Below, one piece after another: positions 9,306-29,455 of a stretch of DNA of 64,000 nucleotides. The notes under the pieces were generated by a model, which worked only from the letters and a program-made list of their open reading frames with translations, made no database searches and was not told the DNA's origin. The DNA is from Bryobacteraceae bacterium (GTDB lineage: Bacteria > Acidobacteriota > Terriglobia > Bryobacterales > Bryobacteraceae). The stretch spans positions 54,914 to 118,913 of the forward strand of contig JAICJH010000012.1 of NCBI GenBank assembly GCA_025928545.1, written 5' to 3'. Within the stretch, counting starts at the first letter, position 1; each line of letters opens with the position of its first letter. The translations under genes and the position numbers were made by a program.

Positions 9306-10316
9306 TCAGTCGTTTAGCGAGGCGGAAATCACGTGGCAATGGGCCAGAGTGGGGATCGGTTTGCCCGATTGCAGGCCGGCTTCCGCGAGCCAGGAGCGGT
9401 ATTCCGCGGCGGAGTAGGCGCGGCCTTCGGTCAGAGTGAAAAGCTGGGCGGAATAGCAGGCTACGGCGAGTGGGCCGTCGAGCGCGTCGTTCAGCAGAAC
9501 GTCATGAATCAGGAGCTGGCCACGGGGCTGGAGGCAGGCCGCAGCTCGGCGGATCAGTGTTCTGCAATCGGCGGTGTCCCAATCGTGCAGGATGTTGGAA
9601 AGCAGAACGAAATTGGCAGGCGGCATGGGGCTGGTGAACATGTCGCCTTCCAGAAATTCCATGCGGTCGGTTACGCCGGAGTTTTCGGCGAACTCCTTTG
9701 CTACGCGCAGAACTTCGGGCCGATCAAGGGTGATGGCGCGGAGTTGGGGGTTCTTTTGCAGGAAGGCGATGGAATAGATTCCGGTGCCGCCGCCGATATC
9801 GAGGAGAGTTCCGGGGCCGAGAGGGAGGCGATCCGCCAGCACCGGAGCGACGTTCTTCGCGCGGCCGGCGAGGGCAAGGGTCAGATGGCGGGCGGAGGCT
9901 TCCTTCTCCATCGCGGCGGATTCCATGCCTTCCTTATATATGAAGGCGGCATTGGGTGGCCGATTGTTGCGGAGGGTTTGAACGAGGTCGAGGACGGCGG
10001 GGGATTCGGCGGCGAGGCCGATGTAATCCGCAATGCTGAAATAGCTGGCGGGCGACAGGTGTTCGATGGCGATGGGGGATAGCTCCAATTGGCCCGATGC
10101 GTTCGCGACGATCAGATCCATGGCGCGGAGGGCTGTGATCAGGACGTTGGCGGGGCGTTCTTCGAGTTGCGTGGCTTCGCGAAGATCGGCGAAAGACCTG
10201 GGGCGTTGGCTCAATAGCTCGAAGATTCGGAAGTGGGCTACTCCCGCAATCAGGAGGTTTGAGGCAAAGCCCGCGCGGAAGTATTCAAAGATGGGAGTAG
10301 GATCGGAGGGCCGCAT
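9306..10316 (-). CDS. SAM-dependent O-methyltransferase (PF00891-type)
   Basis: Small-molecule O-methyltransferase, 336 residues from the ATG at 10316 (MRPSDPTPIFEYFRAG). The frame is open further upstream, but that part reads as low-complexity sequence and overlaps the preceding gene. The N-terminal half is the winged-helix dimerisation domain typical of this family. The catalytic half has the SAM loop LLDIGGGTGIYSIAF, an acidic EFLEGDMF segment and the motif LLSNILHDWD, where His is the usual general base. It starts 32 bases after the STAND NTPase stop on the same strand, so it could be the last gene of the gasdermin block, but it may be unrelated. Substrate unknown. Confidence 0.85.
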   Translation of the reverse strand: MRPSDPTPIFEYFRAGFASNLLIAGVAHFRIFELLSQRPRSFADLREATQLEERPANVLITALRAMDLIVANASGQLELSPIAIEHLSPASYFSIADYIGLAAESPAVLDLVQTLRNNRPPNAAFIYKEGMESAAMEKEASARHLTLALAGRAKNVAPVLADRLPLGPGTLLDIGGGTGIYSIAFLQKNPQLRAITLDRPEVLRVAKEFAENSGVTDRMEFLEGDMFTSPMPPANFVLLSNILHDWDTADCRTLIRRAAACLQPRGQLLIHDVLLNDALDGPLAVACYSAQLFTLTEGRAYSAAEYRSWLAEAGLQSGKPIPTLAHCHVISASLND

Positions 10317-10347
10317 TGGCGTTTCAGTTTGAATTGTAGCCGTGCAG

Positions 10348-13300
10348 CTATTTATTTTTTTGTTTTTTTGTGGACGCGGGCTTCGCGTTTTCCGCATCCG
10401 CCTGTTTCTTCTTGCTCAGACTGCTGATCACCACGTGGCGCACCGCGTGCTCCGCCGTGATGTGGTCGCCAAAAACCAAACCCGTGGAAGCGCCGAAGCC
10501 GATCCAGCTGCCCATCCCGTTCATGTCGATGTGGCTGTTCAGAACCTCGGAACCTTCGTAAATCACGCGTACGGTTCCGATCGTGCGATTGACTTCGACC
10601 CTGACACGGCGCCACTGTCCGTTACTGTAAACGTCCGGCATGGAACGCACCTGGCTGACCTGAAGCGCCTCTTTCTCGTCGACACCGCAGCCATTTTTCC
10701 CACACAGAGTGATGGATCGACGCCCATAGGTGTTGAAGTTGACACCAAACCCCGAGCCTGGCAGAAAACCTTTTTCGAGAGGCGCGGCGAGATTCTCGGT
10801 TTCGTAAGGCTTCTTATCCTTGCCGAACATGAAAACCAGACCGTAGCCGGTGTAATTCGGGTCCGATGACACGGCGTTCTTAATGGAATATTCGAAGTCC
10901 ACGGCGAAATCTTTCGTGATTCCGGGCAACGGGCTGGCGCCCTTCTTCTGTTTTTGCTGCGCCGGTGTGGTGTCCATCAACACGGCGGTGGTCTGCGAAT
11001 ACTCCTGATCGTGAGTCAGGATCAGTTTATTGTCCTGATAAACCGGATAGTTTCCGGTGGCAACGCGGTGGGCGCGAAGGGTCCCATCGAGAGTGAATGC
11101 CAGAGCAGGATCCGGGGATGCAGCGCCGGCGGGGGTAATCCTCACGTTACGAATGTCCTGTTTCAGAACCGCTTCGCCGGTTGCGGCGCCGAACCCAAAG
11201 CCTCCGTAGCTGTTGTTCATTGGCCCCGGGCGAGACAAAGCGAGACGGCCATCGAGATAAACCCTCATCCCCTGGAAATCGGGTCCGCCCGGAACGCACA
11301 TGGGCTTGCCGGTCACAGGAAGGACATCAATGCAGGCTTTGATCCACTTGCCGGGGGCGAATACTCTGGTGTCCCCGACCGACATATCGGGCCGATCATC
11401 CGTTGTGGTCGCCGGAGAATAGACCCGCAAGCCGATTCCAGGGCTTCGGTAGGTATAGGCGTTGAAAACGAGGCCATAGCCGTTGCCCCAGGCGAAGCCG
11501 AACGCCGTGTCCGGTACTGTGTTGTTCACATATGGTGTGCGGTCTTTGTAAAACATGAACGCGAAGCCGTCGCCGATGAGGCGGCTGTCGCCGAGCGTGT
11601 TTTGCATCTGGTACTCGAATTCCGCTTTGAAGGCCCCTTTGAGATCCTGTTTACTCATGACGCTGGATCGTGCTCCCTGCACGCGATCGGGCATCAGCGA
11701 AATCTCCTCACCGCGCAGGAGGGGGAAAGCCACCGGGAGCGTTCTTTGCCGCTTCAGTAAATCATTTCCCGCGAGATCGTTTTTGGTGAAACTTTCGATC
11801 TGAACATCGCTCCCGAAGTACTTGAGAGCGGCCGACATGGCCGAATCCGTCGGGGTGAGATCGTCCTCTTCGAGTTCGTGTCCTCCGCCGATATTCTTGT
11901 AGCCCAGTTGTTCGAGGGATCGGTGGAGCATCTTATGCCGCAATTCACCCCCCTGTTCGGACAAGATTTTTTTCAAATCGAATTCCTCGTTGAACACCGA
12001 GTTCTGCAGCGGAAGATCCTGCAAGTCGTTATCGGAGGCGCTGAACAGCTCCTCGTAATCTTTATCGAAGTAAAGCGCCAGTACGGCGGATTCATGGAGA
12101 GGTGTTCGGGCCAGCAGTTTCCCCGAATTACGATCGAGCACCCGCACCGTGCCATCGCCGTGACCGGTAACCACTGTGCCGGAGTTTCCCCAGAAGGCTA
12201 CGGAAGTTACGCCCGCGGTGGCGCTGTTTGTAGCAGAAGGCCGACCTGCGGAAATCAACTGGTTTCCGGAATGCGCTACCCGATAGTAAGAGACCGATCC
12301 ATCGCCCATGCCCGCAGCCAGTACCGGATCCCGCTCGCGGGACCATGCCAGCGCCTGCACCGCGGGGCACTTGTCGCGTGAAACGCGGCAAGGCAATTCG
12401 ATTGCTTTTTCCAATTTTCCTGGCCCGACCACGAGTAAGATGATTCGCCCATCTGTAGTGCCGGCTGCCAGATATTCCGGTCCGAATGCCAAAGCCCGGA
12501 CTGAATCGGGGCTGGTCCACTGGAGCATTGCGCCCTTACCTTCGTACACGAATACGCTATGTTCTGTTTGCTGGCCGCCGGGGTTTTCCACGGTTCTGTC
12601 CAATCCCACGGCGAACTGTTTTTCCGTAGCGTCTGTAGCCAGCGACCGAACGAGACCAGCGGGAATCTGGAGCGCTGCCGGAAGCTTGCAATCAGAGCAG
12701 TGCAGCCGGGATTGCTGGCTGGAGTTGTCACGGCTGTAGAACAAGTCTCCCGAGTCATTCATAATCGTCGCTCTTGTCATTCCCGCGACGCTATTGTCTT
12801 CACCAGGATCTGTGTCATCATCCTCCGGGTCGTCGGGAAGAACCGAGAGTTCATCGACCCGCAGCAGGACGCCTGCCACATCGGGAACGGGGGCGGTGGC
12901 ATGATCGAGCGTTGCCAGGGTGTAAAGCCATACGTCGCGCGCGTCTTCCGGAGATACATTGTCCGAGGCCATGACCCGGGCATCCGCATCACGCGCTTTT
13001 TCGGTGAACAGCCGCAGGATGGCGGCATCAGCTTTGGCGAGCGCTCCGTCCGCTATCTGTTTCTTGTTGGTGGCATCTAACTGAGCGGCACCGGCGACCC
13101 TTGCCGCTTCTTCAGCAATTCCTTTATCCCGTAACGCAGCGACTTTCGCATCCCGCGCGGCCTCCGCACTGACGCTCGCGGCATTGGCACTGTTGCGCGC
13201 TTCTTCCGCACTTGTCCTCGCGACGTTCCACAGCAACCCGGCGGCGACGACTGCCAGTACGGCAAACCCGAGAGCTATGCGGAGGAAAATGTTTCGCTTG

Positions 13301-14733
13301 CGAAGTTTTTCCGCCTGTTCTCTCTCGCGTTGCGCCTGCTCTTTCTCTCGCTGGGCCTGCTCCCTCTCGTGCAACTCGGCGGCCGCCTGCCGGTCCACAT
13401 CGGCTTGAGCGCTCTTCGAAGCCTTGAGGAATTCGTCTTCATTGGGCTGTAATTCGAGACCCTCGGCTTCCGCCAGTGCCGCGGAGAGTTCATCGCCGAG
13501 CAGGAGCAACGCAGGTTTCCGGCCTTCGGCTATCCACAACCTGGCGCTTTTCTGCAGCTTGTTGAGATGCGCGTCCAGCCATGCCGTGTTACTTTCACGG
13601 ACGGGCGCGACCAGGCGGTCGTGCGCGAGTTCGTACCAGATGGAACTCCCGCGGGGTTCGCCCCGGACCAGATATGTATCGAGGAGGTCCTGCACAACAT
13701 CGTTCGCAAGGCCGCCGCTGACTCCGGCCGGGTCATGCCGTACCTGGTCACGGACGCCTTCCGGCGTGATCAGCTTGTTCTGAAACCATTCGCGAATGGC
13801 CCGCTCGCGGCTTTCATCGTATCGCCGCACAGAGTTCGGGCCCGCCGGTTTCGGCAGCGGCGAAGCCGCGATCCGCGCGGCGGTATTGTAGTAACTCTTC
13901 AAAGCGCCGCCGACATCTCCGATGTCGTGCTCTTCGATGAACAGATCGTTCGGGTGATCGCGCTCCATGCGCTCCCAAAGATCGAAGCAGACAACCTGGA
14001 GCTGAAGAGGCTCCACGTAATCGCCTACCTGTTCCTCGACGACGCCCAGAGCGTTCTGCACCTTGACCGTTGCCAGATTTCTCGCCAATGTTTCGACGAC
14101 TCCCGGGGCAAAGTGCCTGGCAAGTTTCTCTGTTGGATTACGGATCGCGTCTTCCGCACCTTTGACTGTGAGGCGGTCAATCCGGTAACGGTTTTTCAGA
14201 TGCGTAGGAATCAGCATCGCGAAGGGATCGAGCGGGGCCAGATAATCCTCGCGCAGGATCAGCAGCGCCCAGATGCCGGGATCGCTCAGGACCTTGCCGA
14301 GCTGAGCGAAAAATTCCTGCTTAGGCGCGGAATTCGTCGGATCGATGCGCAGAATTTCTTCAAACTGGTCGATGACGATCAGCGGATATTTATCACGTGG
14401 CCGGCTGGCGACATATTCGGACAGGGTGACATCGTCGTGTTGATCGGTTCCCGCAAGGCCGGCGATCGCGCTCCATACAAAACGATTGTTGACCGGTACC
14501 GGAGGTTCCGTGTTGACGCGCGTCGGACCCCAGATGTCAAACCGCTTCATGAGTTGCGGAATGAGTCCCGCATGAACGAGGGAACTCTTGCCCGCCCCGG
14601 AGGGCGAATAGAGCAGAACAATGCGTTCGGAAGTAATCAGTCCGCGAAGTTCGACGACTTCGCGATCCCGCCCGGACAATTGCTGCGTACGCGAGAAGGG
14701 CTGCGGGCCTACGTAGGGATTGGGGATCGGCAT
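10348..14733 (-). CDS. STAND NTPase (nSTAND1-like) with membrane helix, beta-propeller and two lectin-like domains
   Basis: Very large signalling NTPase of 1461 residues. It starts MPIPNPYVGPQPF, followed by a P-loop at residues 43-51 (SPSGAGKSS) and a Walker B at 117-126 (PLIVIDQFEE), the usual nSTAND1 pattern. The segment to about residue 440 is the winged-helix/helical part (YELAHDRLVAPVRE). A charged coiled coil (about 450-480) leads into one membrane helix (482-503). Next comes an Ala-rich stretch, then WD-like repeats (VRALAFGPEYLAAGTTDGR, VTSVAFWGNSGTVVTGHGDG). Two concanavalin/L-type lectin-like domains end the protein, with signatures GDGFAFMFYKD, GGFGFGAATG, GYGLVFMFGKD and WIGFGASTG. 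If the single helix places the N-terminus inside, the propeller and lectins face outwards. It is 18 bases downstream of the CHAT-SIR2 gene, suggesting it senses a trigger for those proteases. Confidence 0.85.
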   Translation of the reverse strand: MPIPNPYVGPQPFSRTQQLSGRDREVVELRGLITSERIVLLYSPSGAGKSSLVHAGLIPQLMKRFDIWGPTRVNTEPPVPVNNRFVWSAIAGLAGTDQHDDVTLSEYVASRPRDKYPLIVIDQFEEILRIDPTNSAPKQEFFAQLGKVLSDPGIWALLILREDYLAPLDPFAMLIPTHLKNRYRIDRLTVKGAEDAIRNPTEKLARHFAPGVVETLARNLATVKVQNALGVVEEQVGDYVEPLQLQVVCFDLWERMERDHPNDLFIEEHDIGDVGGALKSYYNTAARIAASPLPKPAGPNSVRRYDESRERAIREWFQNKLITPEGVRDQVRHDPAGVSGGLANDVVQDLLDTYLVRGEPRGSSIWYELAHDRLVAPVRESNTAWLDAHLNKLQKSARLWIAEGRKPALLLLGDELSAALAEAEGLELQPNEDEFLKASKSAQADVDRQAAAELHEREQAQREKEQAQREREQAEKLRKRNIFLRIALGFAVLAVVAAGLLWNVARTSAEEARNSANAASVSAEAARDAKVAALRDKGIAEEAARVAGAAQLDATNKKQIADGALAKADAAILRLFTEKARDADARVMASDNVSPEDARDVWLYTLATLDHATAPVPDVAGVLLRVDELSVLPDDPEDDDTDPGEDNSVAGMTRATIMNDSGDLFYSRDNSSQQSRLHCSDCKLPAALQIPAGLVRSLATDATEKQFAVGLDRTVENPGGQQTEHSVFVYEGKGAMLQWTSPDSVRALAFGPEYLAAGTTDGRIILLVVGPGKLEKAIELPCRVSRDKCPAVQALAWSRERDPVLAAGMGDGSVSYYRVAHSGNQLISAGRPSATNSATAGVTSVAFWGNSGTVVTGHGDGTVRVLDRNSGKLLARTPLHESAVLALYFDKDYEELFSASDNDLQDLPLQNSVFNEEFDLKKILSEQGGELRHKMLHRSLEQLGYKNIGGGHELEEDDLTPTDSAMSAALKYFGSDVQIESFTKNDLAGNDLLKRQRTLPVAFPLLRGEEISLMPDRVQGARSSVMSKQDLKGAFKAEFEYQMQNTLGDSRLIGDGFAFMFYKDRTPYVNNTVPDTAFGFAWGNGYGLVFNAYTYRSPGIGLRVYSPATTTDDRPDMSVGDTRVFAPGKWIKACIDVLPVTGKPMCVPGGPDFQGMRVYLDGRLALSRPGPMNNSYGGFGFGAATGEAVLKQDIRNVRITPAGAASPDPALAFTLDGTLRAHRVATGNYPVYQDNKLILTHDQEYSQTTAVLMDTTPAQQKQKKGASPLPGITKDFAVDFEYSIKNAVSSDPNYTGYGLVFMFGKDKKPYETENLAAPLEKGFLPGSGFGVNFNTYGRRSITLCGKNGCGVDEKEALQVSQVRSMPDVYSNGQWRRVRVEVNRTIGTVRVIYEGSEVLNSHIDMNGMGSWIGFGASTGLVFGDHITAEHAVRHVVISSLSKKKQADAENAKPASTKKQKNK

Positions 14734-14737
14734 CGTA

Positions 14738-14763
14738 GTTACTCGCTCCTGTTACTCGCTCCT
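14738..14763. repeat. 13-base perfect tandem duplication at the CHAT-SIR2 / STAND junction
   Basis: The plus-strand unit GTTACTCGCTCCT occurs at 14738-14750 and again at 14751-14763. On the coding strand each copy contains AGGAGCGAGTAAC. The first copy provides the last codons and stop of CHAT-SIR2. The second repeats an AGGAG ribosome-site-like core and an extra TAA just before the STAND start codon. Confidence 0.8.
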
Positions 14764-16875
14764 GTCGACTGGCATGGCTTCGAGTTGCGATTGCAGTTGT
14801 CTCAGGAAATCCGCCGCTGTGCCCCAATAGATGTTGATATCCATTGGCGTGAAGTATTGCCGGAGATACTCCTTCGCCATACGCGCATTGGCAAGCGTAG
14901 TTTCAGCAGGATCAACCTGTACAGCGACGTGTTTGTACTTGGAGCGCTGTTTGCCGCCTTCCTGAGAGAAGATCATCCGGAAGAGCACGCGGAACTTCCA
15001 GTCATCGAGGGGGAAGCCCAGAAAAAGCAGCGAACCGTCGGCGAGGGCCTCGCCGACCACGCCGGGCATGAGTTTGTAACCCGTCGCGCGGATCAGGTAG
15101 TCGAAAAAATTATCTTCCGTCAGAACCCAGGTGCTGTCGTCCGCCTTTCGTCTGTTGCCGAAAACGTAATAGACGAACGGCTTTTGGACGGTGGCATCGC
15201 CCATGAATTCGGGGACCTTAACGGGGTCCCACTGGGTTGTCAATGCGATAGGCTCTTTCTTGTTGCCCTCGAATTCCGCCTCCCGCACATAGGCTTCGAG
15301 AAGCGTGTCATATCCGGCGTTCACGAATACGCGGGCGTCGAAACCGGCAACAATCCTCAACGGATCGCGTTTCGATGAATCGCCGTCCAGGGTAGCCGCA
15401 TTGGAGGCGAGCGCCTGTTGCAGTGCCGGCATGGCGAGCTTATCGACCGGCCGGTTCAGAATGCGTGCGCCGGATTTGTAGATCTCGTCGGTGAAGGCCT
15501 GACGGACCGTTGCCCGCGCGCTGACCAGATCTCCCTTTGTCGCGAGATATTGGGACACCTTGGCAAGGTCGAACTGATCCCGCGTATCCAGCGGGAAATT
15601 TTCCTTACGGGCGATTTCCGAGGAGATGGCGCGGCTGTTGCCGGTGATATGTTCGGCGACATCGGGACCGACGATGGGAACGCACTGACCGCTGCGAACC
15701 GATTCGCAGATAAACTTCCACTGGCCGTTATCTTCGTTGCCTTTGGCGTCTTTGAAGCCTGGGTTGTACCAGATGCGGCCGTTGCGCAGGCGCATAAAGA
15801 GCGCGGGCATCCAGCAATCCGGCTTGTCTCTGACGGCGCCGCGGGCCATGGATGCGGCTCTATCGATCTGTCCGTCCCGAACAAGTTGAGTAAAAAATTC
15901 CTTCATGAACACAGCGGAGGTGTCCATGCTGAAGTTGCCCTGCATTGCGATCACCGCGGGAACGCCGGCGTTCGCCAACTGGGGCCCGAGGGCGGCCAGG
16001 CCGACACCTCCTTTGCCCGCGCTCTGGCAGGAAGCGAGCACGATCAGACGGGGCCGCTGATCCAGTTCCCAAATCCGGCGGACCAACTCCGCGCCCAGGA
16101 CCGGCTTTTTCTCTTCGAGAAAGATATTCGGCTGATTCTTTATCAGCGCGCCGTGGCAAACGAGATACAGGATGTCATAACCTTCGCCCTTCGCCAGCTC
16201 ATCTTCAATACTTTGCAGGGAAACAGGGCCGCCGGGCGCGAGGGGAGTTACCCTTTTCCGGATTCCACTCTGCTCAAATACCGACTGCACGTTGGCAAGT
16301 TCGTCGGTGACTTTAACCTTTGCCAACTCGTACTCTTCAATCAGATCCGCCGGATTCGCCACCACAATCAGGGCGCTGAGTTCGGATTCCTGGCTGAGAC
16401 GCACCGGTTTCGAATCGATGCCGCTGGCAAGGAAACGCGAGACGATGGTCGTCGATCCCATGAACAACCACGCGTCCGGCATCAGCGGATCGGGCAGGGT
16501 CTCCCAATGAACGGCGTGCAGATCCTGAGCGCTGGATTCTATCGAGATGCGCACGCGCAGCGAAGACGAGAGAGTTGTCGCCTCGTTGCGAAAGGCGTTG
16601 AATTGTTCCAGCAGATCGCCCTGGAAGAAGCCCTCGCCGAGTTTTTTTCCGTAGGCAAGCGGATCGAAAATCCCCTGTAGTGCGGGGAGATCGACGGTGA
16701 ACACGGGGTCTGCCGTCGCGGGCCGCTGCTCCGCGGCATCATCGGGTCCATTGAAGCGCAATCCGGCGGTGTAGGTGTTGCCGCTGCGCCGGAGCGCGAT
16801 TTCCAGATCCGAATAGCGGAGGGTCCGTGAGTCGGGTTTTGGGGCCGACGGATCGGGGCTGACGCCGGGACTCAT
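14752..16875 (-). CDS. CHAT-domain cysteine protease fused to a SIR2-like domain
   Basis: Protein of 707 residues. The first 370 are a CHAT (caspase-HetF-associated with TPRs) protease domain of clan CD. The catalytic His is in LVCHGAL (His241) and the catalytic Cys in VLASCQSAGKGG (Cys283), followed by the GVPAVIAMQGNFSMD loop usual in CHAT. From about residue 385 to 680 follows a SIR2-like domain (VPIVGPDVAEHI, FVNAGYDTLLEAYV, WVLTEDNFFDYL, SLLFLGFPLDDWKFRVL). The usual catalytic His of the SIR2 HG motif is replaced (YYVFGN), and the first glycine loop is GPD rather than GAG, so NAD hydrolysis is doubtful. The ATG directly follows the gasdermin-like gene's TAA (TAAATG), implying coupled translation. 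CHAT proteases are known activators of bacterial gasdermins. Confidence 0.88.
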   Translation of the reverse strand: MSPGVSPDPSAPKPDSRTLRYSDLEIALRRSGNTYTAGLRFNGPDDAAEQRPATADPVFTVDLPALQGIFDPLAYGKKLGEGFFQGDLLEQFNAFRNEATTLSSSLRVRISIESSAQDLHAVHWETLPDPLMPDAWLFMGSTTIVSRFLASGIDSKPVRLSQESELSALIVVANPADLIEEYELAKVKVTDELANVQSVFEQSGIRKRVTPLAPGGPVSLQSIEDELAKGEGYDILYLVCHGALIKNQPNIFLEEKKPVLGAELVRRIWELDQRPRLIVLASCQSAGKGGVGLAALGPQLANAGVPAVIAMQGNFSMDTSAVFMKEFFTQLVRDGQIDRAASMARGAVRDKPDCWMPALFMRLRNGRIWYNPGFKDAKGNEDNGQWKFICESVRSGQCVPIVGPDVAEHITGNSRAISSEIARKENFPLDTRDQFDLAKVSQYLATKGDLVSARATVRQAFTDEIYKSGARILNRPVDKLAMPALQQALASNAATLDGDSSKRDPLRIVAGFDARVFVNAGYDTLLEAYVREAEFEGNKKEPIALTTQWDPVKVPEFMGDATVQKPFVYYVFGNRRKADDSTWVLTEDNFFDYLIRATGYKLMPGVVGEALADGSLLFLGFPLDDWKFRVLFRMIFSQEGGKQRSKYKHVAVQVDPAETTLANARMAKEYLRQYFTPMDINIYWGTAADFLRQLQSQLEAMPVDRSE

Positions 16876-17712
16876 TTACGCGCCATGGGCGAAGCTGCCC
16901 GCAAAATCGATTTCAACCAGTTCCGCCGGCGCCACAATGGGGAGGTCCTGAGTGTCTGCGCCCGAAATTTCGGGATCCGCATCCGAAAACGACGTGGCGC
17001 CGCTGGGCGCGACGCCGCGAACATTCCACTGACCCGCCACCCAGGCGATTTCGAAAAGCTGAAAACCGAAGACCAGTGGTTCGGCGTTTTGGTAAGTGAC
17101 TTCGGTGTTGTCGCTTCCGCCCACGGTCACTCCGACTTTGGCCCCCAGAGCGGCTTGAATAGCGGGTACGTTCACGTTCACCGATGTGCTGTTATCTTTT
17201 TTCGCAGTAACTTTGATTGACTTCGCCATGAGGACCTGTGAGATCACCAGAGCCTGCGTACCTTTCTGACCAAAATATTTTCGGACGAAAGGGTTCTGGC
17301 TGGCCAGTTCGCCCTTTGCAATGTAGTTGCCGATGACGAAGGGATCGATGCCGGAAGTAGTGACATCGCCCAATTGAAACTGCACAGACTTCGCGTCCGA
17401 GTATGCACCGTTCACGCTGGGCGCGGAGCCTCCAAACATGCCGTTGAGCGCGTTGGCAAGGATGTCGAGACCTGCCGAGAGTTTCAAATCGCTGGTGCGA
17501 AATCCGGAGATCGCGCCCGAGAGTTGGGGGGCGCCGACCGGTGGCACAGATACGGCGGATTTCCAGATTTGATCCAGGGTTCCCAGCCATGCTTTTGACT
17601 TACCGTCGATTCCGATAATGCCGAGGGGAACAATCCCCTGGCGGGGCAGCCGCAGCACGCTGTAACCGAGTTCATTCAGATAAGTCAGTTTTGGATCTAC
17701 GCACAGGGCCAT
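16876..17712 (-). CDS. Bacterial gasdermin-like pore-forming protein
   Basis: Protein of 278 residues with no signal peptide. It starts MALCVDPKLTYLNELGYSV and then RLPRQGIVPLGIIG. This resembles my memory of bacterial gasdermin N-termini, which have a short tail with a Cys, then G-Y-x-V-x-x-LPR, a P-L pair and a G-x-LD-x-IW segment (here GTLDQIWKS). Cys4 matches the position of the acylated Cys near the N-terminus in characterised members. The long amphipathic stretches (VQFQLGDVTTSGIDPF, SVNVNVPAIQAALGAKVGVTV) suit membrane-inserting strands. A polar tail from about 236 to 278 (SGATSFSDADPEISGADTQD) could be the protease-removed inhibitory end. Length fits the family. Its neighbours strongly support the call: a C25 protease gene 5 bases upstream and a CHAT protease gene directly abutting. 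Assigned by motif memory and context, not by alignment. Confidence 0.68.
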   Translation of the reverse strand: MALCVDPKLTYLNELGYSVLRLPRQGIVPLGIIGIDGKSKAWLGTLDQIWKSAVSVPPVGAPQLSGAISGFRTSDLKLSAGLDILANALNGMFGGSAPSVNGAYSDAKSVQFQLGDVTTSGIDPFVIGNYIAKGELASQNPFVRKYFGQKGTQALVISQVLMAKSIKVTAKKDNSTSVNVNVPAIQAALGAKVGVTVGGSDNTEVTYQNAEPLVFGFQLFEIAWVAGQWNVRGVAPSGATSFSDADPEISGADTQDLPIVAPAELVEIDFAGSFAHGA

Positions 17713-17717
17713 GTGGA

Positions 17718-19259
17718 TTAACTGAGTATATCCATAACTTCTGTGCGTAACCGTACAGCCGGATCCCCGAAGACAATATAGTTACGTGCGTCGTCGCGGG
17801 CAACCCACTGGATTGCCAATGCCTTCATTTTTTCCGGAGAAAGTACGCGGTCGCCATTCTGCACGTCCCGCATCAGGTCTGAAATTTCATGCGAGAGCGC
17901 GCCCCAGTTGGTATTGAATTTGTCGGTGGCATGGCCGATGCGAACCCCGCTCATCAGGTTATTCAGAATCATGCGGAAGTCACCGTTTTGCGCCGTGCCG
18001 TTATCGGATGCGAAAGAATAACCCCACGCACGGTCGATGTGGCCGACGACTGCCAGTGCGCCGCCATCGCTATGAGAAAGGAGTTTACGGGGCAGGCTGG
18101 AGAGTGAACTTTGGGATGCGATCGGCTTCTTCCCCTGTTTGGTGCGACTGAACGTATCGAATTCGGGCCAGCCCACTCCGTAACAGGCAAACATGAAATG
18201 GATCATGCCGTGAACTCTGGCGCTTTGATCGATGTCGGAAGCCGCAACAATCTGGTCGTCTGTGGCGGCAACTCCCTTGACCCATTCCTGACAGAGAAGC
18301 GCGCCGCGTTGGGCTGCGATTAAGCTGTCATCCGCCGGGTCATAAAATGAATTGCCATTGGCATCGCTCCGCATGACGGACTTTCCGTGTGAGCCGGTGA
18401 AGAGTAAAGCCGGGCGGCCTCCGGGAATATCGCCGCGCATGATTCTGAGCAGCGAGTCCTTATTGGCGCTGTCTCCGTTGCCTGTTCCGGCGCCTAAAAA
18501 AGCCTGGAGCGCGAAATTCTGTTTTCTGGCCTTGCCGATGCGGCTGTTGTCATCCGTTCCGTTTACCAGTGGATTGGCGACCTGTTCCGTCAGAAGCCTG
18601 GTTGCGTAATCGCCCTGATTGCAAGCGGCGAAGAACGCGACCTGCCGCGAGGTGGGCACGGTGGCGTCCTTCTCGTATTTGACAACCGAATCCGCATATT
18701 GGCGGAATTCATCGGGTGTGTCGAACCAGATGCGGCCCACGGCATAGAAGATGTCGAGTTCGTATTGAAATTCAAACGGGATGTCGAGCGGCGAGCCCAC
18801 GATCAAGACGTAGTAGGGAACCTTCCATGGTTCGGTGACGGTGCGGAGATCAGTATTGTGGCGGGTGAGCCAGGCTTTGGCGGATTCTCCGGTTACATAG
18901 TCGCCATCGAATTTGATGAAACGCCGCGGGTCCCGGACTTCCTCGTCAGCCGGCGGTTCCTGGACCTGCAACCTGCGCCATTCGATCAGAGGGTCGAGTG
19001 CATCTTTAATATCCTGGCTCACGCCTGGCGCAAACAGGACTGCCCAGCCGGATTCGTTGAGCTTGGCTGGATCGATCACGCTGTCGTCAACGCCCCAGTG
19101 GGCGGCGGCCTTGGCAGCTTTGAGGGCGATGGCGTCGGGGTCGACGTTTTCCGGCAGCGGCGGTGCGACGAGGAGCGCCTCGCGGTAGACGTCTTCCAGG
19201 ACAGAACCATCTTCGCGGACGCCGAATGGTACCGGTCCTGAAATGAAATCGTCAGTCAT
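17718..19259 (-). CDS. C25/caspase-fold (clan CD) cysteine peptidase
   Basis: Protein of 513 residues without a signal peptide. The likely catalytic dyad is His291 in ALLFTGSHGKSV and Cys359 in IHFMFACYGVG, each at the end of a hydrophobic strand as in gingipain/caspase-type enzymes. The C-terminus ends in YIVFGDPAVRLR, a pattern common in C25-like peptidases. The N-terminal 140 residues appear to be a separate domain of unknown role, followed by the parallel-strand element YYVLIVGSPLDIPF. The gasdermin-like gene begins 5 bases downstream, so the two are almost certainly co-expressed and this peptidase is a candidate activator or a second trigger. There is no obvious ribosome site before the ATG at 19259. 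Confidence 0.78.
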   Translation of the reverse strand: MTDDFISGPVPFGVREDGSVLEDVYREALLVAPPLPENVDPDAIALKAAKAAAHWGVDDSVIDPAKLNESGWAVLFAPGVSQDIKDALDPLIEWRRLQVQEPPADEEVRDPRRFIKFDGDYVTGESAKAWLTRHNTDLRTVTEPWKVPYYVLIVGSPLDIPFEFQYELDIFYAVGRIWFDTPDEFRQYADSVVKYEKDATVPTSRQVAFFAACNQGDYATRLLTEQVANPLVNGTDDNSRIGKARKQNFALQAFLGAGTGNGDSANKDSLLRIMRGDIPGGRPALLFTGSHGKSVMRSDANGNSFYDPADDSLIAAQRGALLCQEWVKGVAATDDQIVAASDIDQSARVHGMIHFMFACYGVGWPEFDTFSRTKQGKKPIASQSSLSSLPRKLLSHSDGGALAVVGHIDRAWGYSFASDNGTAQNGDFRMILNNLMSGVRIGHATDKFNTNWGALSHEISDLMRDVQNGDRVLSPEKMKALAIQWVARDDARNYIVFGDPAVRLRTEVMDILS

Positions 19260-19274
19260 GTTGGTTGGTTTTGA

Positions 19275-19329
19275 CAGGATGCGGAAAAACCCAAATAGCC
19301 GCCGATGAACGCAGATGGACGCCGATCAA
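19275..19329. repeat. Dispersed intergenic repeat, copy near the C25 protease gene
   Basis: Begins CAGGATGCGGAAAAACC and continues AAATAGCCGCCGATG, then related ACGC(A/C)GATG words. It matches, in the opposite orientation, the sequence at 45333-45386 over about 54 bases with few differences, and its core also occurs at 1549-1570. It lies in the 155-base gap between the repeat-peptide gene and the C25 protease gene, where the protease promoter or leader would be. Confidence 0.75.
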
Positions 19330-19350
19330 AAGTGAACCCATCCCACCAGG

Positions 19351-19406
19351 CCACTTGCTGACCCGCATGGCTCGAAAGATGCTGAGCCGCGCGCGTCAGC
19401 AAGTGG
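19351..19406. repeat. Large REP-like hairpin between repeat peptide and protease genes
   Basis: Arms CCACTTGCTGAC (19351-19362) and GTCAGCAAGTGG (19395-19406) are perfect 12-base inverted repeats. Inside them GGCTC (19369-19373) pairs with GAGCC (19384-19388), and most bases between the two stems can also pair. The structure lies 8 bases after the peptide's stop codon. There is no T-run after it on either strand, so it is not a normal intrinsic terminator. It resembles REP-type palindromes; it could act as a transcript-processing or attenuation site. Confidence 0.7.
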
Positions 19407-19414
19407 TCATTTCA

Positions 19415-19588
19415 CTAGCTGGCCGCCGCGCCGCCTGTTCCGCCATCGGAAAAGCTCGGTTTATCGTCAACGTCCGAAAAGCTGGGCTTATCGTCGACGT
19501 CCGAAAAGCTGGGCTTGTCGTCGACATCGGAAAAGCTCGGCTTATCGTCTGGTTCGGAACATCTCATATACTCTGTTTCTCTGTTCAT
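19415..19588 (-). CDS. 57-residue peptide with four DDKPSFSD repeats
   Basis: Starts with ATG at 19588 behind a strong AAAGGAG ribosome site that lies directly after the kinase stop codon. A longer reading from 19654 would run inside the kinase gene and has no such site. The leader is MNRETEYMRCSEP. Four copies of DDKPSFSD follow, joined by V, and the tail is GGTGGAAAS. At DNA level the repeat unit is 27 bases with mostly synonymous differences between copies, so the peptide repeat itself appears to be maintained. It has no signal peptide. I know no family for it. Possible roles, all inferred: substrate of the adjacent kinase (each repeat has two Ser beside acidic residues), protease target or decoy, or multi-core precursor peptide. 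Confidence 0.7.
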   Translation of the reverse strand: MNRETEYMRCSEPDDKPSFSDVDDKPSFSDVDDKPSFSDVDDKPSFSDGGTGGAAAS

Positions 19589-19610
19589 ACCTTCGATCTC
19601 CTTTATCCAA

Positions 19611-21767
19611 TCACTTACTCTTTGCTTCGATGGCGGCAAATCTCCGGTCGGCAATCAGTGCCGCCATTTCCGGGTTTCGTTTCAGTTGTTCCAGCGGATA
19701 CTTCTTTTCCAATGCCTTCCCGATCCATCGCAGAGCGTCATCCCTGTGATGGAGGAGTTCATAGCCTTCACCGGCGCGATAGAGAACGGTAGGATTATCG
19801 GGATCCAGAGCCGCGGCCTGCCGTAACAAGGGCAAGCTCTTGTCGCCCAGGCCAATCGTCGCATAATACGAACCGAGACGGGAGAGAACAGTTGCATCCT
19901 GCGGCTGCCGGGCTCGGTCTTCTTCCGCCAGTGCGATCGCCTTCATGTAGTTCTCGCGCGCCAGAACCTTGTCACCGGTTCGATCATAGACATACGCCAG
20001 ATTTGCAACCGTGAGGTAATTCGAGGGATTCAGTTTAACTGCCTTAAGGTAAAGATCGACAGCTTCCCGGTAGCTTCCTTCCTGTTGCAGCACGTTTCCC
20101 AGATTCGCAAAATAATTGTCGGCCGGATAGAGGTCGATCGCCTTATAATACGCTTTTTTTGCCTCTGCGGAATTGCCCAGCCGACGGTATGCGATCCCCA
20201 GGTTGTTCCACACCTTGGAATTATCCGGAGTCAGGCTTACCGCGAGTTTAAACTGATTCGCGGCTTCTTCAAAACGGCCGTTGGTGAGAAAGAAGTTCCC
20301 GAGCTGATTGGGCCAGCGCCAGTCCCGCGGCCCGAAGTCCTCGGCTTTCTGATACTCGGGCTCCACTTCCGCATTCCTTCCCTGTCTGATAAACAGTTCG
20401 GCGCGCGCCGCGATGGCCTCGGCATTCTTCTTATCTATACTCAGTGCCGCCTTGATCTCCTGCTCCGCCAAATCGTTTTTTGTAAGCAGCGTATAGAGCA
20501 TGCCGCGCGTCACATGAACCGACGCCAACTCCGGATCTATGCTCAGTGAACTTGAACACGCAGCCTGTATCTTGTCGACAAGCTCGGGTGATCCGAGGTC
20601 GCGATAGTTAATAAAATAAGCGCGGCAAAGTCCGGCAAAAGCCACGGCGTATCTGGGATCCGCAGTCACCACTTTCTGGAATCCGGCGATTGCTTTATCG
20701 AGATTGCCTGGAATGTAGTATTTGTCGAGATAGCTTTGCGCTGTGAAATAAGCTGCATCCGAACCGCCGGCTGACGCTGCCGCCGAACCTTTCGGCAACA
20801 ACCCGCGCACGGGAAACCACAAGGCCGCTCCCAGAATTCCCAGCGCAGGCACTGCCATCCACCAGTGAAATCGTTTTCCGCCGGGCACCGCATTTGCGGA
20901 CACCATAGTTTGCGTGGAACCTGAACCTAAGCTGTCTGAAAGCGCCGAAAGCATTTGTCCCGCGCTCTGAAAACGTTCCGCCGGATTCTTGCGGGTGGCC
21001 GTTTCAATAGCCTGCACCAGCTTTTCGGGCAAATCGGCGCGGTCGTCGTACAGGGAGCGCCGTTTGTTGGTTTCATGCTGCGCGGTGAATTCCGGCAGGG
21101 TCGGGGCATCCACCGGATATTTCGTCGTCAACAGGTGATACAGCAACACTCCCAACGCATAGATGTCGCTGGCAACGGAGGCCTGTCCCCCGGTAAATAA
21201 CTCCGGCGCCATGTAGGTAGGGGTGCCGCCCAGATGGTGGTGTACCTGTTCTTCCAGCGAGAGCCCGAAATCCATCAGGAGAATGCGGCCGCCCTCTTCT
21301 CGCATGGCGTTGCTGGCTTTGATGTCGCGATGCAGCAATCCAGCGGTATGTACGGCGCTGACCGCTTTGCAAAGGTCGATTCCGACCAGCGCAGCTTCAC
21401 GGGGGCCGAACGGGCCCTGCATCGCGAGAAGTTGAGTCAGGGTGTGGCCGCGTACAAAATCGCTCCAGAAGCCGACGCGGCCGTCATGCGTGTCGACACC
21501 GTAAACCGACACGACGTTCGGATGCCGAACCTTGGCCAGCAAACGCGCCTCGCGCAGGATCTCCTTGTGCTGATCGGCCTGGCTTGAAACACGAGGAAGC
21601 AGCACCTTGAGCGCGACCTCGCGCTGCAAGACGGTATCGAACGCGCGATATACCTCACCGAATCCGCCGGCGCCAACCTGCTCGAGGATCTGAAACGGTC
21701 CCCAGACTTTCAGCGGCTGCTTTCCGTACTGAGGATCGCCCTCGTGAATTGTGAGGGTGTTATCCAT
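19611..21767 (-). CDS. Membrane Ser/Thr protein kinase with TPR domain
   Basis: Protein of 718 residues. The N-terminal Hanks-type kinase has the Gly loop VGAGGFGEVYRAF, Lys54 in VALKVL, HRD at 146-148 (LLHRDIKASN), DFG at 166-168 and the APEL segment, so it should be active. One membrane helix follows (about 301-322), then a C-terminal part built from several tetratricopeptide repeats (for example VWNNLGIAYRRLGNSAEAKKAYYKA and PTVLYRAGEGYELLHHRDDALRW). Such kinase-TM-TPR proteins are common in Acidobacteria. It is the first gene of the gasdermin block. It begins 29 bases after the truB stop, with a short AT-rich stretch containing a TATAG/CTATA inverted repeat (21785-21801). The downstream peptide gene is 22 bases away. 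Confidence 0.93.
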   Translation of the reverse strand: MDNTLTIHEGDPQYGKQPLKVWGPFQILEQVGAGGFGEVYRAFDTVLQREVALKVLLPRVSSQADQHKEILREARLLAKVRHPNVVSVYGVDTHDGRVGFWSDFVRGHTLTQLLAMQGPFGPREAALVGIDLCKAVSAVHTAGLLHRDIKASNAMREEGGRILLMDFGLSLEEQVHHHLGGTPTYMAPELFTGGQASVASDIYALGVLLYHLLTTKYPVDAPTLPEFTAQHETNKRRSLYDDRADLPEKLVQAIETATRKNPAERFQSAGQMLSALSDSLGSGSTQTMVSANAVPGGKRFHWWMAVPALGILGAALWFPVRGLLPKGSAAASAGGSDAAYFTAQSYLDKYYIPGNLDKAIAGFQKVVTADPRYAVAFAGLCRAYFINYRDLGSPELVDKIQAACSSSLSIDPELASVHVTRGMLYTLLTKNDLAEQEIKAALSIDKKNAEAIAARAELFIRQGRNAEVEPEYQKAEDFGPRDWRWPNQLGNFFLTNGRFEEAANQFKLAVSLTPDNSKVWNNLGIAYRRLGNSAEAKKAYYKAIDLYPADNYFANLGNVLQQEGSYREAVDLYLKAVKLNPSNYLTVANLAYVYDRTGDKVLARENYMKAIALAEEDRARQPQDATVLSRLGSYYATIGLGDKSLPLLRQAAALDPDNPTVLYRAGEGYELLHHRDDALRWIGKALEKKYPLEQLKRNPEMAALIADRRFAAIEAKSK

Positions 21768-28957: not shown

Positions 28958-29455
28958 ATGTTCAGAAACATCGCACTTCCACTGATCGTGGCGGCATTTG
29001 CCGCAGGTGTTGTCGTCGCCCAACAGGACGAACTGCTGCAGCCCGCCATGGAACCAACCGGCGGGTGGGCATCGGCCGGCACCATGGGCAAGGCTGGCGA
29101 CTGGACAGCTACGACGGTTGCAGCCGGAGTCGCGCAGAAGCCGCTGCCGGGGAAACCAGCCACCATCGTGGGCGAGATTGTAGATGTTTCCTGCTACCTC
29201 CAACTCGGCAAACATGGCGCCGCGCATGCCGCGTGCGGCAGCAAGTGCCTCACAGCCGGAGAAGCAATCGGCATCCTGACGAAGACCGGCCAGCTTTATC
29301 TTGCGATGGCGGAAGAGCACGATCAGCGGCGCGATGGCAAGACCACGTTCCGCAAGGCTGCGGCGGATAACTTCGCCAAGGTCATGACCGTGACCGGCAC
29401 CACGACGACGGTAAACGGCATCAAGACGATCTACGTGCAGGGCTACACGATGTAA
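28958..29455 (+). CDS. Secreted protein of unknown function with conserved Cys-rich core
   Basis: Exported protein of 165 residues from the ATG at 28958 (MFRNIALPLIVAAFAAGVVVAQ, a Sec signal) behind GGAGGG; an ATG at 28937 would add seven residues. The mature part contains IVGEIVDVSCYLQLGKHGAAHAACGSKC and then LTAGEAIGILTKTGQLYLAM. The arrangement C, H, C, C with a following G-x-x-G-ILT suggests a small metal- or haem-binding OB-like domain, and I have seen similar sequences in Acidobacteria without an assigned role. It converges on the ROK kinase gene with a 13-base overlap. Confidence 0.75.
   Translation: MFRNIALPLIVAAFAAGVVVAQQDELLQPAMEPTGGWASAGTMGKAGDWTATTVAAGVAQKPLPGKPATIVGEIVDVSCYLQLGKHGAAHAACGSKCLTAGEAIGILTKTGQLYLAMAEEHDQRRDGKTTFRKAAADNFAKVMTVTGTTTTVNGIKTIYVQGYTM

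What the first reader, a model, noticed from the sequence alone, without database searches (positions are those of the whole stretch)
9306..21767. Candidate gasdermin-based cell-death (anti-phage) locus with two clan-CD proteases, a STAND sensor, a kinase and a repeat peptide
Seven consecutive same-strand genes lie here. Seen in the sequence: kinase-TPR, 57-residue repeat peptide, C25 peptidase, gasdermin-like protein, CHAT-SIR2, STAND NTPase, O-methyltransferase. Junctions from the C25 gene to the STAND gene are 5, 0 and 18 bases, with TAAATG between the gasdermin-like and CHAT genes. Known: bacterial gasdermins are encoded next to CHAT/caspase-type proteases and often STAND-type NTPases, and are cleaved to make pores that kill infected cells. 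Inference: this is such a system with an unusually large set of upstream signalling proteins. The kinase and repeat peptide are not standard parts that I know of.
Basis: partly seen in the sequence, partly recalled or inferred. Interest (0 to 1): 0.93.

Follow-up and report, generated by a model that had tools for sequence, protein, structure and literature searches.

The report
Gasdermin operon with kinase-peptide switch
In an Acidobacteria genome, a bacterial gasdermin (kin of the proteins that punch holes in dying animal cells) is encoded in one gene row with two cysteine-protease genes, a STAND-type sensor gene, a kinase gene predicted to span the membrane, and a small repeat peptide gene of a kind that follows most examined relatives of this kinase, so a kinase-peptide pair likely decides when the pore is released.

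Summary
The 278-aa protein is a bacterial gasdermin by profile (NCBIfam E 1.7e-52), sequence (PDB 7n51, E 7.8e-41) and predicted fold (Foldseek E 1.1e-23, TM 0.80). It lies between C25 and CHAT proteases, both with intact Cys-His dyads, followed by a STAND NTPase predicted to span the membrane. The O-methyltransferase is not part of the system: in relative G008 it sits beside the same efflux gene without the others.

The unexpected parts are real. This kinase-TPR subfamily is followed by a small, mostly acidic, fast-changing peptide gene in 22 of 24 loci by eye; under a strict rule 14 of the first 18 (and 2 of 6 later ones), against 8 of 182 other ORFs and 1 of 19 other kinases of the genome. 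The kinase lies near C25 in 10 of 22 loci and near the gasdermin in 5 of 12 gasdermin genomes, on two branches of its tree. Kinase-C25 also occurs without gasdermin, so the pore looks like a plug-in effector.

Likely mechanism (untested): kinase and peptide gate the proteases, which cut the gasdermin tail. Anti-phage function is untested. Repeat-gasdermin resemblance holds in the window, not in its two closest relatives.

The parts
19611..21767 (-). Ser/Thr kinase, one hydrophobic segment (residues 304-320), then TPR domain (718 aa)
   Evidence: Pfam; segment position; a 17-residue hydropathy peak of 1.6 or more in 22 of 23 family members and HRD/DFG motifs in 23 of 23; with a 19-residue window the window's own kinase stays under 1.6; topology is inferred
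19415..19588 (-). 57-aa peptide, 9-residue unit KPSFSDVDD, 4 copies; 22 bases after the kinase stop
   Evidence: eight relatives in the protein database; repeat codons 15 synonymous, 0 nonsynonymous differences
19351..19406 (-). hairpin between the peptide and C25 genes
   Evidence: 91-nt stretch folds at -46.3 kcal/mol against shuffles -30.4, z -4.8
17718..19259 (-). C25 (gingipain-type) cysteine peptidase, 513 aa
   Evidence: PF01364 6.2e-10; His and Cys conserved in 20 of 20 aligned
16876..17712 (-). bacterial gasdermin, 278 aa
   Evidence: NF051890 1.7e-52; PADLOC bGSDM 1.7e-58; 7n51; fold
16975..17007 (-). gasdermin residues 236-246 (holds SFSD 241-244): low-confidence linker between pore domain and C-terminal tail, candidate cleavage region
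   Evidence: pLDDT under 50; Phe242 column F in 45 of 49; cleavage is inferred
14752..16875 (-). CHAT protease with C-terminal SIR2-like domain, 707 aa
   Evidence: CHAT His and Cys conserved in 14 of 14 aligned
10348..14733 (-). nSTAND1 NTPase, one predicted TM helix (482-500), WD40 and further C-terminus, 1461 aa
   Evidence: hydropathy peak 2.43
9306..10397 (-). O-methyltransferase: neighbour, not part of the system
   Evidence: in G008 (L153) it sits beside the RND gene without the other genes

Best explanation
This is a bacterial gasdermin locus in which a predicted membrane receptor kinase and its companion peptide likely control two clan-CD proteases that would cut the gasdermin's C-terminal tail and so release a presumably lethal membrane pore. 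Shown by sequence: gasdermin identity, intact protease dyads, intact kinase motifs, the peptide gene and its recurrence beside this kinase. Inferred: the TPR part of the kinase and the WD40 part of the STAND protein face out of the cytoplasm and sense an envelope event; the kinase acts through the small acidic peptide (as a dedicated substrate or adaptor) on the C25/CHAT/STAND module; the protease cuts in the flexible linker that starts near residue 236; the pore kills the cell. Untested: whether phage is the trigger.
For: Gasdermin; Cys4 (known bGSDMs are palmitoylated on an N-terminal Cys, passage) in 47 of 47 rows with a residue there. Proteases: dyads intact, C25 20 of 20 and CHAT 14 of 14 aligned. 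Kinase link: kinase-peptide-C25-gasdermin-CHAT-STAND in L009 and kinase-peptide-gasdermin in L010; gasdermin-C25 with a convergent kinase in G474 and G328 of another family, on a separate branch of the kinase tree. Of the 22 kinase loci have C25 in the fetched stretch and 1 has gasdermin only, though C25 gave only 18 hits in 151 genomes. Peptide link: 14 of 18 kinases against 8 of 182 other ORFs, Fisher p 7e-13; 1 of 19 readable other kinases of the window's genome, 23-36% identical; 22 of 24 by eye. The KPSFSD form was found in 3 of 251 genomes (a fourth, weak hit set aside), the three that also hold the 70% identical kinase and the gasdermin of 75% or more among the 151 genomes of those two calls.
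Against: In 11 of 22 kinase loci neither C25 nor gasdermin was found, so the kinase-peptide pair has other uses. In G012 no protease adjoins the gasdermin (that genome is listed as 10% contaminated). In 7 of 12 gasdermin genomes the family kinase is not in the stretch read. Related kinases are not independent, so the Fisher p is too small; under the strict rule only 2 of the 6 later kinase loci pass, one of them doubtful. The tree's starred branches alone force only one change for the gasdermin label, so one origin is not excluded. The repeated motif of some peptides holds no Ser or Thr (L080, L083, L084), against its being the phosphorylated part. No experiment supports kinase action on the peptide, cleavage, or phage defence.
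Confidence: 0.55

Rival explanations
1. Ordinary gasdermin-protease-STAND defence system; the kinase and peptide form a separate two-gene signalling pair that only happens to sit upstream in the same direction.
For: Half of the kinase loci (11 of 22) lack C25 and gasdermin; kinase-peptide-gasdermin and C25-CHAT-STAND lie on different contigs in G012; a hairpin separates peptide from C25.
Against: Kinase and C25 lie together in 10 of 22 loci though C25 is rare (18 hits in 151 genomes), in different orders and strands; gasdermin-kinase pairing on two branches.
Confidence: 0.25
3. RRNPP-like peptide pheromone: the peptide is the ligand of the kinase's own TPR domain, so cells agree on death by density.
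For: TPR receptor gene directly followed by a small peptide gene, some with tandem repeats, as in RRNPPA systems (passages of PMC9765709); repeats in L071 (6 copies), L077, L083, L084, L131.
Against: No clearly hydrophobic N-terminus in the 18 peptides measured (12-residue peak at most 1.28); the TPR domain is predicted to lie across a membrane from the peptide; several peptides show no repeat.
Confidence: 0.1

Closest known systems
Bacterial gasdermin-protease systems (bGSDM; Johnson et al. 2022, not held; seen through passages of PMC9612521 and PMC10989679)
   Same: Gasdermin with short C-terminal tail and N-terminal Cys, beside a caspase-like (C14 or CHAT) protease and sometimes an NLR-type sensor.
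   Different: Two clan-CD proteases of different families (C25 and CHAT), plus a kinase and its peptide; the word kinase has 0 occurrences in the main text of either paper.
CARD-NLR gasdermin systems (Lysobacter; Wein et al. 2025, not held; seen through passages of PMC13236601)
   Same: Multi-gene sensor-protease-gasdermin design; there too gasdermin is replaced by other effectors in some variants.
   Different: No trypsin-type Pfam hit here; CARD presence not tested by structure.
Defence kinases PD-T4-6 and MADS mad6 (PADLOC models)
   Same: Kinase domain matches (best E 1.5e-63).
   Different: The match covers the kinase domain only and many kinase models match; no TPR part or companion peptide is implied.
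RRNPPA quorum-sensing pairs (PMC9765709, passages)
   Same: TPR protein gene immediately beside a small peptide gene, sometimes with repeats.
   Different: Here a predicted membrane Ser/Thr kinase; peptide without an evident secretion signal.
Fungal HET-Q1/HET-Q2 (PMC10989679, passages)
   Same: Gasdermin of 278 aa cut at F238, 40 residues from its end; here Phe242, 36 from the end, is F in 45 of 49 relatives.
   Different: Subtilisin-type protease; cleavage at Phe242 here is only inferred.

Membership tests
Bacterial gasdermin | Profile and sequence match over the pore domain | tested here: met
   NF051890 178 bits against cut-off 100; 7n51 E 7.8e-41 over residues 2-245
Bacterial gasdermin | Gasdermin fold | tested here: met
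   AF2 pLDDT 82.2; the 13 Foldseek hits with E up to 0.001 are all gasdermin entries, 7n51 TM 0.80
Bacterial gasdermin | N-terminal Cys for palmitoylation | tested here: met
   Cys4 in 47 of 47 rows with a residue there; palmitoylation itself not testable
Bacterial gasdermin | Short autoinhibitory C-terminal tail | tested here: inconclusive
   Conserved tail after a disordered linker; autoinhibition not testable
Bacterial gasdermin | Adjacent protease | tested here: met
   C25 and CHAT adjoin with intact dyads
Bacterial gasdermin | Pore formation after cleavage | not testable with these tools
   needs protein work
CARD-NLR gasdermin system | Trypsin-like protease and CARD domain | tested here: inconclusive
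   No trypsin-type Pfam hit in the block; CARD not sought by structure
RRNPPA pair | Peptide gene immediately beside a TPR receptor gene | tested here: met
   22 of 24 loci by eye; strict rule 14 of 18 and 2 of 6
RRNPPA pair | Secretion signal on the peptide and cytoplasmic receptor | tested here: not met
   12-residue hydropathy peak at most 1.28 in 18 peptides measured; TM-like segment in 22 of 23 kinases; both are hydropathy estimates
SIR2 NADase effector (ThsA type) | Catalytic His of the SIR2 domain | tested here: inconclusive
   The residue before the conserved Gly, where His is expected from recall, is F or Y in 6 of 6 CHAT-SIR2 proteins aligned, but 3 of 6 have a His two residues earlier

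The most novel reading that the evidence does not exclude
A new signalling unit in Acidobacteria: a receptor Ser/Thr kinase that travels with its own small acidic, fast-changing, often tandem-repeat peptide, and that has been coupled on two branches of its tree to protease-gasdermin death machinery. The peptide is the cytoplasmic messenger between a kinase sensing the envelope and the death proteases, which would make this the first kinase-gated bacterial pyroptosis, with gasdermin as one exchangeable effector of a kinase-C25-CHAT-STAND core.
Probability: 0.35. Interest if true: 0.88.

Novelty: new variant of a known kind. Interest (0 to 1): 0.72.

Why it matters
How bacterial gasdermins are switched on is largely open outside a few operons. 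This locus and its relatives point to a receptor-kinase input, as in eukaryotic innate immunity, and to a recurrent kinase-peptide pair whose peptide can be read from the genome beside each kinase. That makes a concrete, testable set: the same kinase family with gasdermin, with proteases but no gasdermin found, and alone. In the listings of nine full-text searches no report of a kinase or such a peptide in a bacterial gasdermin system was seen; searches matched over a thousand papers each and showed 8 to 20, and the two founding gasdermin papers are not held.

Tried and rejected
Decoy idea (repeat mimics the gasdermin cleavage site): strong in the window, fails in L009 and L010, kept as a minor rival. 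O-methyltransferase as a system part: rejected. SIR2 half as an active NADase: doubtful. Peptide as PqqA or another known family: only sub-cut-off hits. The G159 hit of the peptide profile (E 0.0028) was set aside as probable chance. Small ORFs at L132 (37 aa, GTG) and L133 (35 aa, GTG, no ribosome site) were counted as doubtful, not as positives. The strict control did not pass L071, L072, L081 and L083; probable reasons, are antisense ORFs over L071 and L083, no recognised ribosome site in L072, and a start 67 bases away in L081. Of the six later loci, L128, L129, L131 and L133 do not pass it. L076 and L077 came from the C25 search, so they are not in the 10 of 22; the L077 kinase is split into two ORFs. 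Kinase searches scored only the best 7 or 2 candidates a genome and the gasdermin search the best 6, so the counts are of strong hits. Promoter and terminator scan: nothing above the shuffles.
Full report
Identity of the genes. All seven ORFs exist as described. The 278-aa protein has no significant Pfam hit in the local library but passes NCBIfam prok_gasdermin (178 bits, cut-off 100) and PADLOC bGSDM, and matches the Vitiosangium gasdermin 7n51 at E 7.8e-41 (named). All 54 rows of the protein search, the query included, carry PF26164. The AlphaFold2 model (pLDDT 82) is closest to 7n51, then to other bacterial and animal gasdermins. Residues 236-246 have low confidence and precede a conserved tail; Phe242 is F in 45 of 49 relatives. 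Neither the cut site nor pore formation was tested.

Proteases and sensor. C25 and CHAT both keep the Cys-His dyad, in 20 of 20 and 14 of 14 aligned proteins. In the SIR2-like half the residue before the conserved Gly is F or Y in 6 of 6, with a His two residues earlier in 3 of 6, so its activity is doubtful but not excluded. The STAND proteins have a hydrophobic peak near residues 430-505 in 6 of 6 examined.

The same block in relatives. L009 (same contig as G001, same genus, titled uncultured Acidobacteriia) has M28-TruB-kinase-peptide-C25-gasdermin-CHAT-STAND-OMT-RND in the same order. L010 (G012) has kinase-peptide-gasdermin and then two ORFs without Pfam match in the 2 kb left on the contig; a C25-CHAT-STAND row of lower identity (53 and 47% for the first two) lies on another contig of that genome. 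G012 is listed with 10% contamination and C25 stands near that contig's end, so this split needs caution. In G008, OMT and RND sit together without the system genes, so OMT bounds the block on that side; the TruB side was not tested in a genome without the block.

Gasdermin neighbourhoods. Searches (151 genomes; 399 genomes of the class, overlapping sets) give 12 gasdermin genomes. C25 with CHAT: G000, G001, G011, G029, G088; C25: G474 and G328 (the latter also a weak CHAT hit); C14 caspase-type: G151, G394; none of these adjacent: G012, G008, G050. The family kinase is near in 5 of 12 (G000, G001, G012, G474, G328). Outside this count, L011 (Acidobacteriota MAG) has C25-gasdermin-CHAT on a 5.5-kb contig. 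In G011, G029 and G088 a 430-440-aa protein stands between CHAT and C25 (the one scanned, from G088, has no Pfam match). The same trio is found without a gasdermin hit in L073, L074 and L075, though L074 ends at a contig end beside C25.

Kinase-C25 without gasdermin. Eight such loci (L067-L072, L076, L077) gave no gasdermin hit with three gasdermin queries. CHAT is present in 4 of 8 (L067, L068, L072, L076) and STAND in 4 of 8 (L067, L068, L076; weak in L070). L068 also holds the 430-aa protein of the other type (43% identity), linking the two kinds of system. L069 is only a 10-kb contig.

The kinase-peptide pair. A search with the kinase gave 16 hits in 13 of 151 relatives at E 1e-150 and six further loci at E 1e-140 in the class. 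Of these 22 loci, 10 have C25 in the fetched stretch (G000, G001, G003:C37, G040, G081, G088:C4, G018:C51, G009, G474, G328), one has only gasdermin (G012:C157), 11 have neither. C25 homologues number 18 in 17 of 151 genomes, so the closeness is far above chance, even allowing for shared ancestry. After each kinase stop lies a small ORF in all 18 loci and clearly in 4 of 6, with two doubtful. Under a strict rule (ribosome site, start within 60 bases, 33-260 aa, little overlap with other genes) it is 14 of 18 kinases against 8 of 182 other ORFs in the same loci, 2 of the 6 later kinases (L130, and the doubtful L132), and 1 of 19 other kinases of the window's genome whose 3' ends could be read, two more running off the fetched stretch. 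Pairs of peptides align far above shuffles: L068/L078, L081/L082, L083/L084, L079/L080, L129/L130. Their sequences change between kinase clades; 16 of 18 measured are acidic, L067 and L069 being basic. Several have tandem repeats, such as six 34-residue units in L071, whose stop abuts the C25 ORF.

Kinase tree. The five gasdermin-linked kinases fall on two branches (window/L009/L010 and L129/L130). The tree needs two changes of the gasdermin label among the 12 labelled rows, and so do the bootstrap trees from the 5th to the 95th percentile, but starred branches alone force only one (the other 12 of 24 rows carried no label).

The window's peptide form. Eight database relatives share KPSFSD.DD-type units, most of them with an EYYEQFG-like stretch and a Cys in front. 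Copy number is 4, 6 and 8 in window, L009 and L010. The repeats are kept at the protein level: over six codons 15 synonymous to 0 nonsynonymous pairwise differences in the window, 23 to 18 in L009 (5 units) and 81 to 8 in L010 (pairwise counts are not independent). The profile is found in 4 of 251 genomes, one of them a weak hit set aside; the other three are those with the 70% identical kinase and the gasdermin of 75% or more.

Mechanism. The kinase has a TM-like segment (22 of 23 with a 17-residue window; 12 of 18 with a stricter 19-residue one, the window's own not among them), so its TPR domain likely faces out while kinase domain and peptide meet in the cytoplasm. The peptide follows the kinase whether or not proteases are near, so it most likely works with the kinase: substrate, adaptor or restraint. 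Where the pair stands beside C25, CHAT and STAND, with or without gasdermin, it would feed the death module. I commit to a kinase-gated protease-gasdermin switch (0.55); the exact role of the peptide is open, and the decoy idea is weakened.

Novelty. Gasdermin with a caspase-type protease and an NTPase sensor is known (passages). A receptor kinase with its own peptide as part of it was not seen in the listings of nine full-text searches, which do not cover most subscription papers.

Noticed in passing
window 19351-19406: Strong hairpin (z -4.8) between peptide and C25 genes; its arm was found in the window only there, apart from one 2-mismatch match at 29235. It may divide the transcript into a kinase-peptide and a protease-gasdermin half.
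   Followed up: partly
L015, L016, L017, L068, L073, L074, L075: A 430-440-aa protein (no Pfam match in the one scanned) accompanies CHAT and C25, with or without gasdermin: another unnamed part of such systems.
   Followed up: partly
L129:8075-8473 and L130:11472-11864: Where the kinase stands with gasdermin in the other family, its companion is a 130-132-aa protein, related between the two loci, ending in a Gly-rich tail, instead of a short repeat peptide.
   Followed up: partly
L080:8393-8530 and the small ORF before it: Two successive small peptides after one kinase, both ending in GDPAGN, as if duplicated around a C-terminal motif.
   Followed up: no
L072:2343-6800: CHAT fused to a long WD40 array directly upstream of kinase-peptide-C25: sensor and protease in one chain.
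   Followed up: no
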